In this document: one piece after another, positions 2,525 through 9,188 of the stretch | How the letters are laid out: each line of letters opens with the position of its first letter | Position numbering within the stretch: position 1 is the stretch's first letter | NCBI GenBank assembly: GCA_023212725.1 | Contig: JALBYF010000010.1 | Coordinates: 124,001-188,000, forward strand | Length of the DNA stretch: 64,000 nucleotides | Source: Tranzscheliella williamsii | Taxonomy: Eukaryota; Basidiomycota; Ustilaginomycetes; Ustilaginales; Ustilaginaceae | Direction: 5' to 3' | The notes under the pieces: generated by a model | Seen by the model: the letters and a program-made list of their open reading frames with translations, nothing else | Databases searched by the model: none | Told to the model about the DNA's origin: nothing | Made by a program: the position numbers and the translations under genes

Positions 2525-5500
2525 TCATCCCGTCGCTGCGCAGCGTGCATTGGTCTGTCGAGGTACGCGGAGGACGGGGTACGGGGAGGTTACGGGGGGT
2601 GGTGCTGCGGCGAGGCGGCGGGCCTTTTTGTCCTCGTACACGCGGCGCAGGACCTGGCGTATGGTGTGCAGAGCGTAGCGGTCGAGGTTGGCCTCGGCGG
2701 TGGCGAGCAGCGTGCGCACCTGCGCGGGCGTCCAGACGAGGTTGTACGAGTTGCTGAACCGCGACGTGCTCGGATCGTACGCGGCGTTGACCGCGTTCGG
2801 CAGCAGCGGGCAGTAGATCAGCCAGAGCGTCGAGCCGTCCGCCCGCCGCGTCCCGCGCAGCACGCGCGCGTACTGCCCGAGAAATGCCGCCTCCACCGCC
2901 TCCGCCGCCTCGTCCAGCCCAACGACCGGCGCCGCCGGCGTGAACTGGTGCGACTCGTCCACGAGATCCATGTCGCAGTCGTCGGCGAAGTTCTCGAGCC
3001 GCCGCATCGCCGACCCCGCCTGCACGTCTGAGGACGCATCGAACGCGAGGATCACGTCCACGCCCCGCTCCCGCCGCGCAAGGATGTGGTTCGGCAGGTT
3101 GTTCGACATGCCCGCGTCCATCAGCCGGATCCGCCCCTGGGACTCCCACGAAGGAGCCCCTTCCTCCTTGCTCATCCCCCCGTTCTGAGGACCGGGCTGG
3201 TGTTCATCCAGCCCCGTCTCGTTGCTGGCCCATTTCGACTCCGACCTCCGTTGGACAGCCCCCGCTGATGCAGGAAGCTTCACCTGAATGTCGTCCCAAT
3301 GGGTCGGTGCCGTGCGGCGGTTTTCCGAGTTCGGTCTAGCGGGCTCTATCGACACCTGCTCCCCACCATCGCCGGTCTGCTCCGCAAGCACGTTGGCGAC
3401 GACGTATTCGCCATCATGCGAGACACTGAGATGGAGCTTGGGTGCGGATCTGCTCAACCCGACCTTGGCCAGCCCTTGCTCTGAAAATTGCAGAAAAGGC
3501 TTCTTTGTCCGATACTCATAAGCTTCCAGCTGCGCAAGCTCGACGCCGTCCACCGGGCCACCCTCTGCAAATGGATCCCTCGTCTTGGTGACGCAGAGAT
3601 CTTTCCAAGCCACCACCCATCTGGGGTAGAGCGCTTTGTAGGCTGCTTCCTTTGCGCTCCACCGGACGGCCAAGTATCGCTGGAGAACGTCGTTGCTAAC
3701 CTCGTCGCCTGCGGCTTTGATCATGGTATTCCACTCCACAAGCTCTCGAGCGGAAAGAATACGATGAGCTAATCGAATAAGAGCCCGCGGTCGTCCCATC
3801 GCATGCGCTCTGAGCTTGCCGGGCGGTGGTTCCCGAGTGCTCCTCTGTACGTGTCTCTCGACCAGAGCCTGTATGCGGGGAAGGTGCAGGATATCGATGC
3901 CGACACCTAGCACCTTCGAGCGGATGGCCCCGGTCTTATCGTCCTTCTCCACAGGGCGCACATTGAGGCCGTAGAAAGGGTTGGGCTCGTCGCCGGCCCT
4001 GATCGGATTGCCCCACCTGCGTTCCCACCTCTTCATCCGGACAAAGTTGTTTAGCAGGAAGAGCATACGCGACATGGCTGTGCCTTGGGGCAAAGAGGCC
4101 AGCAAAGCGGATATGTAGCCGCTCAACGGGCCTGCGGGCGCGCTTGTACACTGGCCCAGGAGGAGAGAGAGGGAAGCTTCGGGCCTTCGGTCGAGCGACC
4201 GGCCCGAGACAAACGGCCGACCCCACGCCCAGGTGGGTATATACGCCTGAACATCAGCACTGCCCACTTCTAGGGGCGAAGCTTCGAACCACTGAAAGAA
4301 GCCTTTGGCAACCGGTTCGGACATGTAATCGGATTGCTTATCGTGCGAACGCCTTGCCGTGAGGTTTATCGCCGCCAGCGCCATCGCGTCCTCGTCTGAC
4401 TTTTTTTCGTGAGGTTGCTGGCGCTCGACTAAGGCTTTGGAGCTGGCCGTCTGATGCTGCGCCAGAGCTCTTTTAGGCGGCTGACCCTTACTTAGAGATG
4501 AGTCGGTGTGAGGCCGGACCCCTGCAGCGTTCCGGGGCGCGATGCGGACAGCCGTAAAAATAGGCATCGGTTCGGCTCCTACGTTGATCCCCGATCGTGT
4601 CCATATCTTTGAGAATTGAAAGGTCGCCCGACTAAGGCGGGCACGCGGCTCACGGGAAAGGAGCTGGTAGGTCGTGGTTAGCGTTGCGTAGAGGTCCATG
4701 ATCCCCAGTCCTACAATACCGGCACGTGCCTTCCTGAGAAGCGGACCAAGGAGAAAATAGACACCGCGGCTGCTCCTAGCCACCGTGTCCAGAGCATGTA
4801 GGCTCATGGGATGTGTAAGCTCGCTCGCAGTAGCGAGATAATGGCGGACAAGGCGTTGGGCATCCTGATAGGCAATCGTATAAAAAGCTGCAAGAGCCCA
4901 GCAGCTACCGCTTACACCAGCAGCCCATGTGATGCAGTCCCACAAGCCAGAACGCTTGGAGGCAGCGATAAAGGCGACAAAGCCGTACATGGCACGATAT
5001 CCTCCGCCCGAACCGCCAAGGGCCACCAAGGGTACATCTCGGGCGTCGACATTCTCGATCGCCGGGAGTTGCAGAAACTCGCGTAATGCATCCTTGCCAT
5101 CGCTCGAGATCCGCTTTTGCCGCTTCTTGATGAATTCAACCTCGTCGCGGTGCAATGCTGAAGACCTGCGAACCCTGGCGTCCCATTGCAGCTCAGGGAA
5201 AGTCTTGAGGTCGGTCGCATCGGCTTTCAGCAGCTGGCGGACTTGGGCAAGATCCTTAGCCCGCTGTGACCACCGCTTGACCAAAGACCTGAACCAGGAT
5301 TGGCCGGACTGCCTCCCGAGGAGGTCAGGCGAGACGACGACTTCCGTTGGTTGGGAGCTCTCGCGTTCTGCCACCGCATGAACAGAAGTGGACGTACCAC
5401 GAGCAGTGTGTGCGTCATAGTCTATTGGCACTATCCTTGGTCCTACTCTTGTGCTGCTAATGTGATATTTGTCGAGTTGCAGGCGTCGACCTGCCTGGGG

Positions 5501-5611
5501 AATACGAGAAGAGACCGGCGCAGCCTGGAAGAGGGTGACGAGCGAGCAGAGACAGTAGACTTTCACGTATAGATACGTTGGGGATTGACGTATGCTAGTG
5601 AGGATGGGCAT
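2525..5611 (-). CDS. cPLA2/lysophospholipase-type enzyme with nested AcpS-type phosphopantetheinyl transferase domain, 1028 aa
   Basis: A single uninterrupted frame. The first ATG is at 5611; the frame is open above it but only non-ATG codons occur there. The N-terminus (residues 1-35) is hydrophobic with basic residues and no acid, so it could be a signal peptide or a mitochondrial presequence. The cPLA2 catalytic region shows GGSGGGYRAM (Gly-rich oxyanion loop with Arg), GVSGS with nucleophile Ser234, and MDAGMSNNLP with Asp832, the Ser/Asp dyad of the family. Between the two halves, about residues 566-742, sits a full AcpS-like domain: GVGIDILHLPRI (Asp573), WSAKEAAYKAL (Glu655) and LSVSHDGEYVV. 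Asp and Glu in these motifs bind Mg2+ in AcpS, which transfers phosphopantetheine from CoA to acyl carrier protein. Both active sites look intact. The gene diverges from the COX16-ERV1 gene. Which compartment it acts in is unknown. Confidence 0.85.
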   Translation of the reverse strand: MPILTSIRQSPTYLYVKVYCLCSLVTLFQAAPVSSRIPQAGRRLQLDKYHISSTRVGPRIVPIDYDAHTARGTSTSVHAVAERESSQPTEVVVSPDLLGRQSGQSWFRSLVKRWSQRAKDLAQVRQLLKADATDLKTFPELQWDARVRRSSALHRDEVEFIKKRQKRISSDGKDALREFLQLPAIENVDARDVPLVALGGSGGGYRAMYGFVAFIAASKRSGLWDCITWAAGVSGSCWALAAFYTIAYQDAQRLVRHYLATASELTHPMSLHALDTVARSSRGVYFLLGPLLRKARAGIVGLGIMDLYATLTTTYQLLSREPRARLSRATFQFSKIWTRSGINVGAEPMPIFTAVRIAPRNAAGVRPHTDSSLSKGQPPKRALAQHQTASSKALVERQQPHEKKSDEDAMALAAINLTARRSHDKQSDYMSEPVAKGFFQWFEASPLEVGSADVQAYIPTWAWGRPFVSGRSLDRRPEASLSLLLGQCTSAPAGPLSGYISALLASLPQGTAMSRMLFLLNNFVRMKRWERRWGNPIRAGDEPNPFYGLNVRPVEKDDKTGAIRSKVLGVGIDILHLPRIQALVERHVQRSTREPPPGKLRAHAMGRPRALIRLAHRILSARELVEWNTMIKAAGDEVSNDVLQRYLAVRWSAKEAAYKALYPRWVVAWKDLCVTKTRDPFAEGGPVDGVELAQLEAYEYRTKKPFLQFSEQGLAKVGLSRSAPKLHLSVSHDGEYVVANVLAEQTGDGGEQVSIEPARPNSENRRTAPTHWDDIQVKLPASAGAVQRRSESKWASNETGLDEHQPGPQNGGMSKEEGAPSWESQGRIRLMDAGMSNNLPNHILARRERGVDVILAFDASSDVQAGSAMRRLENFADDCDMDLVDESHQFTPAAPVVGLDEAAEAVEAAFLGQYARVLRGTRRADGSTLWLIYCPLLPNAVNAAYDPSTSRFSNSYNLVWTPAQVRTLLATAEANLDRYALHTIRQVLRRVYEDKKARRLAAAPPPVTSPYPVLRVPRQTNARCAATG

Positions 5612-5936
5612 ATCCGCCGGCTGGCCCACATGCTCAGGCGCGTAGTAGAGGTGACGACGAGCTCGAGATAGTATTAGCGGCTGTATAGTCGTGGTATAGT
5701 GGATGGCTGGTAAGGGTCGCGGCAAAGGTGGTCTGTAGGAACGTGTTCGCTAAAGTTGATACTTCAGGCATTGGCTGTTCACGTTTTGATTACCGCCTTC
5801 AGGGTCCAAACGAAGAAGCCACGACGTTACACTTTTTGCTTCGGGACCCGGACGGCAATTGGCGCAGCGTCTTGGCAATTCGCAATATCGGTGCCACCCA
5901 GTGAACCTTCATCATCAACTTCGCCGAGGGATCGAG
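5612..5936. promoter_or_regulatory. Divergent promoter region between the phospholipase-PPTase and COX16-ERV1 genes
   Basis: There are 325 bases between the two ATGs, which point away from each other. The region must hold both 5' leaders and probably both promoters. I see no clear TATA element or long repeat. The assignment rests on geometry only. Confidence 0.5.
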
Positions 5937-7075
5937 ATGCCGACATTTGAATCAAAGCCATTGCGAAGGCCGCCGTCGTTTCTGGCGAGCCTGGCACCGA
6001 AAGTACGACAACGGCCAGTGCTCTTTTTCGGATTGCCATTCGTGATCACTATGGTGGGGGCGAGCTTCGGGCTGAGTACGCTGACGCAGACCCGATACGA
6101 CTACAATGCGACCAAAGTGCAGGCAATCTCAAAGGAGGAAGAGCTGAGGATGAAGAAGGACCGCAAGAGGGTCGACATCCGGGAAGAGTATTTCGTGAGT
6201 AGCGCATTCGCTAGTGAGCTCGCCAGTTGAAGAGACAAGCTACTAATCGCAATGCCCTTTGTATTTCGGCCGCGTGACAGAAACTGCAATCGAAACAAGA
6301 CGAGTTAGACGACTGGGAGCCAAAGCGGATCGAGCGGCCAGAAGGGGTGGCAGACTGGGGAGTGGTGCCCACCTCGTATCGCTCGGTGGAAGCGGAACCA
6401 CTGGCAGGAGCGGATGCGGACAAGGAAAGACGAACCGGCTTCAGCGTAGAGACGGTCAAGCCATCGCAAAAGCAGGGCAAGGTGGTTCTGGGTCCGGATG
6501 GAAAACCGTGTCGAGCTTGCAACTCGAAGCTTGCCTTCTCAGCAGCCATGAAAGGTACAAAGATGCCTTCTGCTGCTGCTGCTGCTCCTCTGGCCGATGG
6601 GAGGCAATCAGAAAGCCGTGCTGGTGCCGCTGCCGGTGCTGCGGCTTCGCTCGCAGGGGCAAGTTTGTCAAACAGGAGTGAAAGCAACGTGGAATGCCCG
6701 CCAGATGGTGAAGAGCTGGGTCGATCGACGTGGACCTTCCTCCATTCGGCAGCGTCGTATTTCCCCAACGATCCGTCTTCACAACAGCAGACATCCATGC
6801 TAGCGCTGCTGCGCTCTCTTCCTGATGTCTACCCGTGCCTGCCGTGCGCCGAGGCGCTCAAAGAAGAATACACACGAGAGGATCAAGACGGCGGCTGGGA
6901 GGAGAAGAGTCTCAGACTTAAGCAGGCTGTCCGGTCGGGACCGTCGCTGCGCAGATGGCTGTGTGGGATCCACAACGAAGTCAACCAACGACTTGGCAAG
7001 GCGCCATTCCCCTGCTCCGAAGCCAAACTCTCCGAACGATGGCTCGACGGTCCTGCCGACGGCAGCTGCGACTGA
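5937..7075 (+). CDS. COX16-ERV1: COX16-ERV1 fusion protein, two exons, 350 aa
   Basis: Exon 1 is 5937-6194 (86 codons). The intron is 6195-6280 (GTGAGT donor, TACTAAT branch site near 6241, ACAG acceptor, phase 0). Exon 2 is 6281-7075. Exon 1 is a complete COX16 N-terminal half: a membrane segment at about residues 27-49, then KKDRKRVDIREEYF. Exon 2 first completes COX16 (KLQSKQDELDDWEPKRIERP) and then continues in frame into an Erv1/ALR sulfhydryl oxidase. The Erv1 part has a shuttle CRAC (Cys163, Cys166) in GKPCRACN, GRSTWTFLH, the active-site CLPC (Cys272, Cys275), HNEVNQRLGK between the structural Cys314 and Cys331, and a terminal DGSCD like yeast Erv1. COX16 assembles cytochrome c oxidase in the inner membrane. 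Erv1 reoxidises Mia40 in the intermembrane space using FAD. The first ATG inside exon 2 lies after CRAC, so a separate ERV1 start would lose the shuttle cysteines. Confidence 0.88.
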
Positions 7076-8061: not shown

Positions 8062-9188
8062 ATGGCGGACGACCAGGCCTCCTCTGCCATCAAGGGCGAG
8101 GAGTTTGAGCAGAAGAAGCAAGCCACATCCTCCCTCAAGTCGTTCCTTTCCGGTGGCTTTGGTGGTACCTGTTCCGTACTGGTCGGACACCCCTTCGATC
8201 TTACGAAAACACGACTGCAAACGGCAGCGGATGGCACCTACACCGGCGGTCTCGACGTCGTGCGGAAAACCCTCAAGGCTGATGGTATCCGAGGGTGAGT
8301 GGCTGTAGACCCCTGCGATTGCTCCTCTGTTGTTGAATTTTGCCTGCTGACCTGTTCTCATCTGCACCTGTCGATCGTTTCGGTAGTTTGTATCGTGGAA
8401 TGGGCCCGCCTTTGATCGGTGTCACACCCATCTTTGCGCTTTCCTTCTGGTCCTACGATATGGGCAAAAAGCTCGTCTACTCCATGACGCCCAGTCGAAC
8501 CGATCCCAAGCTCTCGCTTCCTGAACTGGCGTTCGCAGGCTTCTTCAGCGCCATCCCAACGACCCTGGTTGCAGGTCCCGCCGAGCGAGTCAAGGTTCTC
8601 CTTCAACTCCAGGGACAGAGCGGCAGCACCGGCCCGGTGTACAACGGACCTGTAGATGTGGTCCGACAGCTGTACAAGGAAGGTGGTCTCAAGTCCATCT
8701 TCCGCGGTACCGGAGCGACGCTTGCGCGAGACGGCCCTGGAAGCGCTGCCTACTTCTGCGCTTACGAAGCATCCAAGCGAATGCTAACCCCCGCTGGGCA
8801 AGATCCTAACCAGCTCAACTTCCTCAACGTGCTCACCGCTGGCGGTCTCGCCGGTATGGCCATGTGGGGTCTTGCCATTCCCCCCGATGTCATCAAGTCT
8901 CGCTACCAAGGCGCTCCTCACGGCACCTATACGGGCTTCCTTGATTGCGCGCGCAAGACCATCGCCAAGGACGGTGTCAAGGCTCTCTTCAAGGGCTTCG
9001 GCCCTGCCATGGCCAGAGCCTTCCCTGCCAACGCTGCTACTTTCGTAAGTAGCCCAGATCCGGACCCGTCCCTGCTCTGCGCTTGTCCACTTGCTGACCT
9101 CTTGTTATCTTGCCCGTCTGCGCTCGTCTGCTGCGCTGCACAGCTCGGTGTCGAAGTATCGCTGGCTGCCATGGACAAGGCGTTCTAA
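8062..9188 (+). CDS. CRC1: Mitochondrial carnitine/acylcarnitine carrier, three exons, 311 aa
   Basis: Exons are 8062-8294, 8387-9044 and 9144-9188. The introns (8295-8386 and 9045-9143) have GTGAGT and GTAAGT donors and AG acceptors. Three mitochondrial-carrier repeats carry the signatures PFDLTK, PAERVK and PPDVIK. The third repeat, IPPDVIKSRYQGAPHGTY, and the ending RAFPANAATFLGVE match the carnitine/acylcarnitine translocase subfamily (Crc1 of yeast, AcuH of Aspergillus) closely. The protein exchanges acylcarnitine for free carnitine across the inner membrane and links peroxisomal or cytosolic fatty-acid breakdown to mitochondria. The length is typical for the family. Intron 2 is 99 nt with no stop in frame, so a transcript retaining it would still encode the same C-terminus with 33 extra residues. 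Confidence 0.92.

What the first reader, a model, noticed from the sequence alone, without database searches (positions are those of the whole stretch)
2525..5611. Phosphopantetheinyl transferase domain nested inside a cPLA2-type phospholipase
One uninterrupted frame holds the N-terminal half of a cPLA2 (oxyanion loop GGSGGGYRAM, Ser234 in GVSGS), then a complete AcpS-type domain (Asp573 in GVGID, Glu655 in WSAKEA, LSVSHD), then the cPLA2 C-terminal half with Asp832 in DAG. AcpS loads the CoA-derived cofactor onto acyl carrier proteins; cPLA2 releases fatty acids from phospholipids. Having both with intact active sites, and as a true domain insertion rather than an end-to-end fusion, suggests coupling of fatty-acid release to carrier-protein activation. 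I know of no described enzyme with this architecture. The signal-like N-terminus is puzzling because known carrier-protein substrates are cytosolic or mitochondrial.
Basis: partly seen in the sequence, partly recalled or inferred. Interest (0 to 1): 0.88.

Follow-up and report, generated by a model that had tools for sequence, protein, structure and literature searches.

The report
Mitochondrial cofactor enzyme inside a phospholipase
In smut fungi the enzyme that probably switches on the mitochondrial acyl carrier protein is not a protein of its own but sits, apparently working, in a loop of a phospholipase, and a copy that seems to have passed to other fungi kept the phospholipase while the guest enzyme decayed.

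Summary
One 1028-residue frame encodes a cPLA2-type phospholipase whose catalytic halves are separated by a complete AcpS-type phosphopantetheinyl transferase (PPTase, residues 566-748) on disordered linkers. It is no chimera: 20 of 20 smut-type proteins (this one, 9 named, 10 unnamed) have the same architecture and both sets of catalytic residues. The own genome has three PPTase domains: a FAS domain, an Sfp-type enzyme and this one. No stand-alone Ppt2 was found, though a mitochondrial ACP is encoded. Tilletia has a stand-alone Ppt2; cPLA2s of Tilletia, Meira and Ceraceosorus lack the PPTase. So the domain probably is the smuts' Ppt2, moved into the phospholipase. Ascomycete cPLA2s branch inside the smuts (AU p 0.003 against a smut-only clade); there the phospholipase is kept, but the PPTase has lost Asp573, Arg650 and Glu655 in 11 of 11 retained copies, or is gone: a natural experiment suggesting that its catalysis matters in smuts. 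The N-terminus is acid-free and conserved; an Aspergillus cPLA2-like protein is reported in mitochondria (title only). Metabolic coupling of the two activities is unproven.

The parts
2525..5611 (-). whole coding sequence, one open frame, 1028 aa plus stop (P0001)
   Evidence: start Met aligns with the start Met of most relatives shown
5474..5611 (-). residues 1-46: conserved acid-free hydrophobic N-terminus, presequence/membrane-anchor-like
   Evidence: alignments; composition; localisation itself not tested
3968..5314 (-). residues 100-548: first part of the cPLA2 catalytic domain (glycine-rich loop 199-204, Ser234 at 4910-4912)
   Evidence: Pfam PLA2_B, fold, residues intact in 20 of 20 smut-type and 11 of 11 ascomycete proteins
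3917..3967 (-). residues 549-565: entry linker, insertion point after NPFYG
   Evidence: pLDDT under 50 for 530-562; alignment with uninterrupted relatives
3368..3916 (-). residues 566-748: complete AcpS-type phosphopantetheinyl transferase (Asp573 at 3893-3895, Glu655 at 3647-3649)
   Evidence: Pfam ACPS, TIGR00556 E 6e-11, just under its cut-off, fold, motif conservation
3149..3367 (-). residues 749-821: disordered, poorly conserved exit linker
   Evidence: pLDDT under 50 for 750-835; 13-26% identity to the four other smut proteins compared
2606..3148 (-). residues 822-1002: second part of the cPLA2 catalytic domain (Asp832 at 3116-3118)
   Evidence: human cPLA2 match; Asp832 in 20 of 20 smut-type and 11 of 11 ascomycete proteins; the model is unsure for 822-835

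Best explanation
The gene encodes one polypeptide with two enzymes. The host is a fungal cPLA2-type phospholipase, probably mitochondrial. The guest, folded independently out of an insertion-tolerant loop on two flexible linkers, is the smut lineage's Ppt2: the AcpS-type enzyme that moves phosphopantetheine from CoA to the serine of mitochondrial acyl carrier protein (for octanoate/lipoate and, recalled, Fe-S and respiratory-complex assembly). Shown here: nested architecture, both folds, catalytic residues intact in all smut-type proteins examined, no stand-alone Ppt2 found in the own genome, a mitochondrial ACP and a LipB-type octanoyltransferase encoded, PPTase decay in the ascomycete copies. 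Inferred: catalytic activity, mitochondrial location, ACP as substrate. Likely origin (inferred): the stand-alone Ppt2 (still separate in Tilletia) was copied into the cPLA2 loop in an ancestor of the Ustilaginales, the phospholipase's address delivered it to mitochondria, and the original was lost. A gene of this kind later passed from a smut to an ascomycete, where a resident Ppt2 would make the guest redundant.
For: Folds and motifs. Asp573, Lys654, Glu655, His732, Asp733 invariant in 20 of 20 smut-type proteins. Nineteen positions are invariant in these 20 nested domains plus 25 stand-alone Ppt2s that I picked from the 120 listed. Own genome: PF01648 has 3 matches, namely the end of a FAS frame (ketoacyl synthase in the same frame), an Sfp-type gene (AASDHPPT_N) and this domain; a Tilletia Ppt2 query finds only this domain (E 2.2e-21). 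A mitochondrial ACP with presequence-like N-terminus and DSL motif and lipB are present. Tilletia stand-alone Ppt2; Meira, Ceraceosorus and Tilletia cPLA2s lack the PPTase. Ascomycetes nest inside smuts (AU p 0.0034) and have lost Asp573, Arg650 and Glu655 in 11 of 11 copies that retain the domain; of cells at smut-invariant positions they keep 50.4% in the PPTase but 89.8-92.1% in three phospholipase stretches. Ppt2 activates mitochondrial Acp1 and is essential in Candida albicans (PMC4659657, passages); filamentous fungi have homologs of all three yeast PPTases (PMC3360786, passages).
Against: No transcript, protein or activity data. The genome search is six-frame and intron-blind, so an intron-split Ppt2 could be missed; only one genome, itself unnamed and called a smut from its relatives, could be searched whole. 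In the protein database only the best 120 of 956 PPTase matches were listed; one of them, P0127 (Ustilago sp., 216 aa), is a separate gene model with part of the domain but without the GxGxD motif. The score for TIGR00556 is just under its cut-off. The reported Aspergillus location is the inter(intra)membrane space, whereas mitochondrial ACP works in the matrix (recalled). The human Sfp-type PPTase serves mitochondrial ACP too (PMC4659657 passage), so the smut Sfp-type enzyme could in principle do so. A resident Ppt2 in the particular ascomycete recipients was not looked for. In the PPTase tree the ascomycete copies lie among the smut ones with weak support and P. flocculosa is not the first branch, unlike in the phospholipase tree.
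Confidence: 0.77

Rival explanations
1. Functional coupling: the two activities are fused because fatty-acid release by the phospholipase and carrier-protein activation are coordinated, for instance by sensing CoA or acyl chains, or because AcpS-type trimers assemble the phospholipase on the membrane.
For: The fusion is kept with both sets of catalytic residues in 20 of 20 smut-type proteins; both activities concern mitochondrial acyl metabolism if the location is right (title only). AcpS enzymes are trimers (recalled).
Against: Ascomycetes with decayed or missing PPTase keep a conserved phospholipase; linkers are disordered and the exit linker is 13-26% identical in the four smut pairs compared, which does not suggest a precise interface.
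Confidence: 0.2
2. The PPTase is real and active but serves another carrier protein, outside the mitochondrion, and mitochondrial ACP is served by the Sfp-type enzyme as in humans.
For: The Sfp-type gene exists; location of either enzyme is not tested.
Against: The nested domain groups with basidiomycete Ppt2s and no other Ppt2 was found; in Fusarium fujikuroi the mitochondrial AcpS-type enzyme was inferred not to replace the Sfp-type enzyme on its lysine-pathway substrate, so the two kinds are not freely interchangeable there (PMC3360786 passage).
Confidence: 0.12
3. The PPTase is released or made as a separate product (proteolysis at the disordered linkers, internal promoter or alternative transcript), so the nesting is only a way of encoding two proteins.
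For: Linkers of low confidence on both sides would be cleavable; other genes encode two mitochondrial proteins in one transcript (recalled: RPP14-HTD2).
Against: Excision would split the phospholipase between its catalytic Ser234 and Asp832; the frame runs through in the 20 smut-type models of 978-1028 aa.
Confidence: 0.1
4. The insert is an inert passenger, or the open frame joins two genes by annotation or assembly error.
For: The ascomycete copies show that the phospholipase tolerates an inert or absent insert.
Against: Catalytic residues are invariant in 20 of 20 smut-type proteins of 978-1028 aa.
Confidence: 0.03

Closest known systems
Fungal mitochondrial Ppt2 / PptB (AcpS-type holo-ACP synthase)
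   Same: Fold, the metal-binding Asp and Glu, Lys and SHD motifs, grouping with basidiomycete Ppt2s
   Different: Known Ppt2s are small stand-alone proteins; here the domain is nested in another enzyme
Fungal cPLA2-type phospholipase (Aspergillus PlaA / AoPlaA) and human group IV cPLA2
   Same: Catalytic fold, Ser-Asp dyad, glycine-rich loop (compared with the human enzymes)
   Different: Carries a second enzyme between the dyad residues; no C2 domain found by Pfam. Orthology to PlaA not tested
Integral PPTase domain of fungal fatty acid synthase alpha
   Same: Precedent for an AcpS-type PPTase fused to a lipid enzyme; the own genome has one
   Different: C-terminal, and its activity is intrinsic to the FAS (PMC3360786 passage); the nested domain has no carrier domain in its chain
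Nested pseudo-PPTase cPLA2s of Stachybotrys, Paramyrothecium, Dactylonectria, Ilyonectria, Thelonectria, Mariannaea
   Same: Same insertion point and overall sequence (46-52% identity over 97% of the query)
   Different: Metal-binding Asp and Glu lost in 11 of 11 copies examined

Membership tests
AcpS-type PPTase / Ppt2 | AcpS fold over the full length | tested here: met
AcpS-type PPTase / Ppt2 | Metal-binding Asp and Glu plus Lys (GxG[IV]D, WxxKEA; roles recalled) | tested here: met
   Asp573, Glu655, Lys654 invariant in 20 of 20 smut-type domains and in 25 stand-alone Ppt2s
AcpS-type PPTase / Ppt2 | Curated family score | tested here: inconclusive
   PF01648 38 bits, cut-off 25, met; NCBIfam TIGR00556 42.5 bits against cut-off 45.35, not met, and TIGR00516 acpS 33.1 against 59.8
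AcpS-type PPTase / Ppt2 | Transfers phosphopantetheine to mitochondrial ACP | not testable with these tools
   needs an enzyme assay; a mitochondrial ACP gene is present
AcpS-type PPTase / Ppt2 | Mitochondrial location | tested here: inconclusive
   acid-free, conserved N-terminus; no predictor or experiment
cPLA2-type phospholipase (PLA2_B) | Ser-Asp dyad and glycine-rich oxyanion loop | tested here: met
   Ser234, Asp832, GGSGGG and Arg206 invariant in 20 of 20 smut-type proteins
cPLA2-type phospholipase (PLA2_B) | Catalytic-domain fold | tested here: met
Human-type group IV cPLA2 | N-terminal C2 domain | tested here: not met
   no C2 hit at E up to 1; so filed as a cPLA2-type catalytic domain only
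FAS-type integral PPTase | Carrier domain in the same chain | tested here: not met
   Pfam shows only PLA2_B and ACPS at E up to 1

The most novel reading that the evidence does not exclude
A mitochondrial PPTase, a kind of enzyme that is essential in other fungi, has in a whole order of fungi become an obligate guest of a membrane phospholipase, so that carrier-protein activation is tethered to the mitochondrial inner membrane (perhaps on the intermembrane side, acting on ACP during import) and rises and falls with the phospholipase; transfer to ascomycetes then recorded which half is dispensable.
Probability: 0.25. Interest if true: 0.85.

Novelty: new variant of a known kind. Interest (0 to 1): 0.74.

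Why it matters
It suggests where smut fungi keep their Ppt2, a kind of enzyme that is essential in Candida albicans and Aspergillus fumigatus and has been proposed as an antifungal target (PMC4659657, passages). It gives a rare natural experiment on domain insertion: gain in a host loop, apparent loss of the stand-alone gene, transfer between phyla, then decay of the guest alone. It also makes testable whether an AcpS-type PPTase works as a tethered guest, and in which mitochondrial compartment ACP is activated.

Tried and rejected
Assembly or annotation join: rejected, because 19 further smut-type proteins share the order. Secretory signal peptide as the reading of the N-terminus: no classifier was run; I prefer a mitochondrial address because of the conserved acid-free stretch and the Aspergillus title, but did not prove it. 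Search for a stand-alone Ppt2 in smut proteins: among the 120 listed of 956 matches P0122 is a contig-end piece of the nested gene (cPLA2 flank visible), P0123 looks like a frame-shifted model of it, and P0127 lacks the GxGxD half; all three judged by eye. P0134 is a PPTase joined to a thioesterase-like stretch, probably a gene-model fusion; not pursued. Paper searches for the full text on Aspergillus PlaA location gave only a title in a reference list (searches; passages of PMC4613230, PMC1855332, PMC6532591 and PMC12731236). Paper searches for the architecture itself; no title or abstract start that they listed describes it, and of the papers they listed I read passages of PMC3360786 only. 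Mitochondrial ketoacyl synthase search was unclear, as FAS- and PKS-like frames fill the list. The mitochondrial ACP pieces score under the TIGR00517 cut-off, being two separate pieces of a gene that looks split by introns. Rows dropped before the careful tree (45 of 53 kept): P0270, P0105, P0267, P0265, P0055, P0029, P0255, P0025 (long branches, truncated or near-duplicate rows); all are in the quick tree, where the ascomycetes also lie inside the smuts, P0105 with a very long branch. The smut-only clade was tested after the quick tree had been seen. The clade of 20 nested PPTases has only moderate support (70/93). Of the 11 ascomycete-type copies three have no species name (P0025, P0029, P0043) and are placed by the trees. 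Of the 20 smut-type proteins nine are named, one is the window's own and ten are unnamed; class and order names are recalled.
Full report
What is there. The finding's coordinates hold, but the gene runs on the minus strand: the frame 2525-5725 is open and its first ATG is at 5611, giving a 1028-residue protein, P0001. The start Met aligns with the start Met of most relatives shown. Pfam finds PLA2_B (E 2.9e-15) and ACPS (E 1.9e-9), both above the curated cut-offs; of the NCBIfam models TIGR00556 matches just under its cut-off.

Spread. A protein search gave 139 relatives, 120 listed. Twenty smut-type proteins (P0001-P0020: the window's own, nine named from Testicularia, Ustilago, Sporisorium, Melanopsichium and Pseudozyma, ten unnamed) have the nested domain with Asp573, Lys654, Glu655, His732 and Asp733 and the phospholipase residues Ser234 and Asp832 all invariant (20 of 20). 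P0105 (unnamed) and P0059 (a partial model from Kalmanozyma) also keep the PPTase motifs. A second search with P0111, an Exobasidiomycete-like relative filed under a fern and close to Meira, brought in cPLA2s of Meira, Ceraceosorus and Tilletia that lack the PPTase (Pfam scan of Meira).

Which PPTase is it? The own genome (18.2 Mb, 135 contigs) has three PF01648 matches: one at the end of a fatty acid synthase frame with a ketoacyl synthase upstream in the same 1584-aa frame, one Sfp-type gene with the AASDHPPT N-domain, and the nested domain. A Tilletia stand-alone Ppt2 used as query finds only the nested domain (38% identity, E 2.2e-21). These searches are six-frame and blind to introns. A mitochondrial-type ACP, apparently split by introns, with a presequence-like arginine-rich N-terminus and the DSL motif is encoded at C60, and a lipB-type octanoyltransferase at C35. 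Yeast has three PPTases, FAS-integral, Sfp-type and the mitochondrial Ppt2, and filamentous fungi have homologs of all three (PMC3360786, passages); Ppt2 is essential in Candida albicans and charges Acp1 (PMC4659657, passages). The nested domain fits the third slot. Stand-alone Ppt2s are listed from Tilletia, Sporobolomyces, Microbotryum, many mushrooms and relatives, and others (120 of 956 matches listed). In the PPTase tree all 20 nested domains fall with 20 of the 25 stand-alone rows, the basidiomycete ones and two unnamed, in a group supported 99/97, apart from Mortierella, Podila, Cetraspora, Diversispora and Paraphysoderma; the nested ones form one side of a branch with moderate support (70/93).

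Natural experiment. Ascomycetes (Stachybotrys, Dactylonectria, Fusarium, Mollisia and others) carry cPLA2s with 45-67% identity to this protein over 34-97% of it, more than Malassezia nana, caprae and equina (41%), which belong to the smuts' own subphylum (taxonomy recalled). In a tree of the phospholipase part alone, with the insert columns removed, the ascomycetes lie inside the smuts: Pseudozyma flocculosa branches first, then Ustilaginaceae-type rows and ascomycetes part (100/98; ascomycete clade 100/99). Forcing the smuts into one clade is rejected (9 rows against 36, p-AU 0.0034; 8 rows dropped, test chosen after the quick tree). I read this as a transfer from a smut to an ascomycete after the insertion. 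In the 11 ascomycete-type copies that keep the domain (P0021, 22, 23, 25, 29, 31, 32, 34, 36, 40, 43), Asp573 is Ser (10) or Gly (1), and Arg650 and Glu655 are replaced in 11 of 11, although these positions are invariant in 20 smut-type domains plus 25 stand-alone Ppt2s. Of cells at smut-invariant positions these copies keep 50.4% in the PPTase (the 25 stand-alone Ppt2s keep 79.9%) but 92.1, 89.8 and 90.9% in the phospholipase stretches 100-360, 436-548 and 822-880. Fusarium, Clonostachys, Diplogelasinospora, Thozetella, Mollisia and others have only 13-100 residues at that site, without the PPTase motifs. The phospholipase is thus kept without the PPTase, while the catalytic residues of the PPTase are preserved only in the smut-type proteins, and in the one smut genome searched no other Ppt2 was found.

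Where it works. The first 46 residues carry no acidic residue and contain a moderately hydrophobic stretch; Arg8, Ser10, Tyr13, Leu14, Lys17 and Tyr19 are invariant in 53 of 53 aligned relatives, with or without the PPTase, and 49 of the 53 have no acidic residue in their first 40 positions. [quoted passage not shown] 2009, seen only in the reference list of PMC6532591; orthology not tested). The gene stands head to head with COX16 (ATG 5611 on minus, ATG 5937 on plus; Pfam COX16 E 8.5e-22), followed by an Erv1/Alr-family frame and a mitochondrial carrier. A mitochondrial address is the natural reading, but matrix or intermembrane space is open, and ACP works in the matrix (recalled).

Mechanism. 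Best supported: a mitochondrial phospholipase that carries the lineage's Ppt2 as an independently folding guest (0.77). Functional coupling of the two reactions is possible but nothing here requires it; the flexible, fast-changing linkers and the ascomycete decay argue against a tight interface. AcpS enzymes are trimers with shared active sites (recalled), so a trimeric assembly is a fair prediction.

Novelty. Both enzyme families are known; the nested combination, its likely role as the only Ppt2 found, and its decay after transfer are not described in any title or abstract start that my searches listed (open-access library only). Public Pfam annotation already lists both domains on these proteins, so the pairing is visible in databases but, as far as I found, unremarked.

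Noticed in passing
window 5937-6196 (+): COX16 (Pfam PF14138, E 8.5e-22) starts head to head with this gene, 325 bases between the two start codons; possibly a shared promoter with another mitochondrial gene.
   Followed up: partly
window 6347-7072 (+) and 8340-9185 (+): An Erv1/Alr-family sulfhydryl oxidase frame and a mitochondrial carrier follow, so the neighbourhood looks rich in mitochondrial genes (the Erv1/Alr family also has an ER member, recalled).
   Followed up: no
P0111, filed under the fern Adiantum nelumboides: Nearly the Meira protein (84% identity); probably fungal contamination of a fern genome.
   Followed up: no
P0127, Ustilago sp. UG-2017a: A separate gene model with half of a PPTase domain, lacking the GxGxD motif; perhaps a broken second copy.
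   Followed up: no
Malassezia-clade cPLA2s (P0107-P0110, P0112, P0246, P0248, P0250, P0251, P0265): At the same insertion point they carry 109-256 residues without PPTase motifs, with a recurring proline/leucine stretch, a basic LR..R run and a DP..FMA motif that looks conserved.
   Followed up: partly
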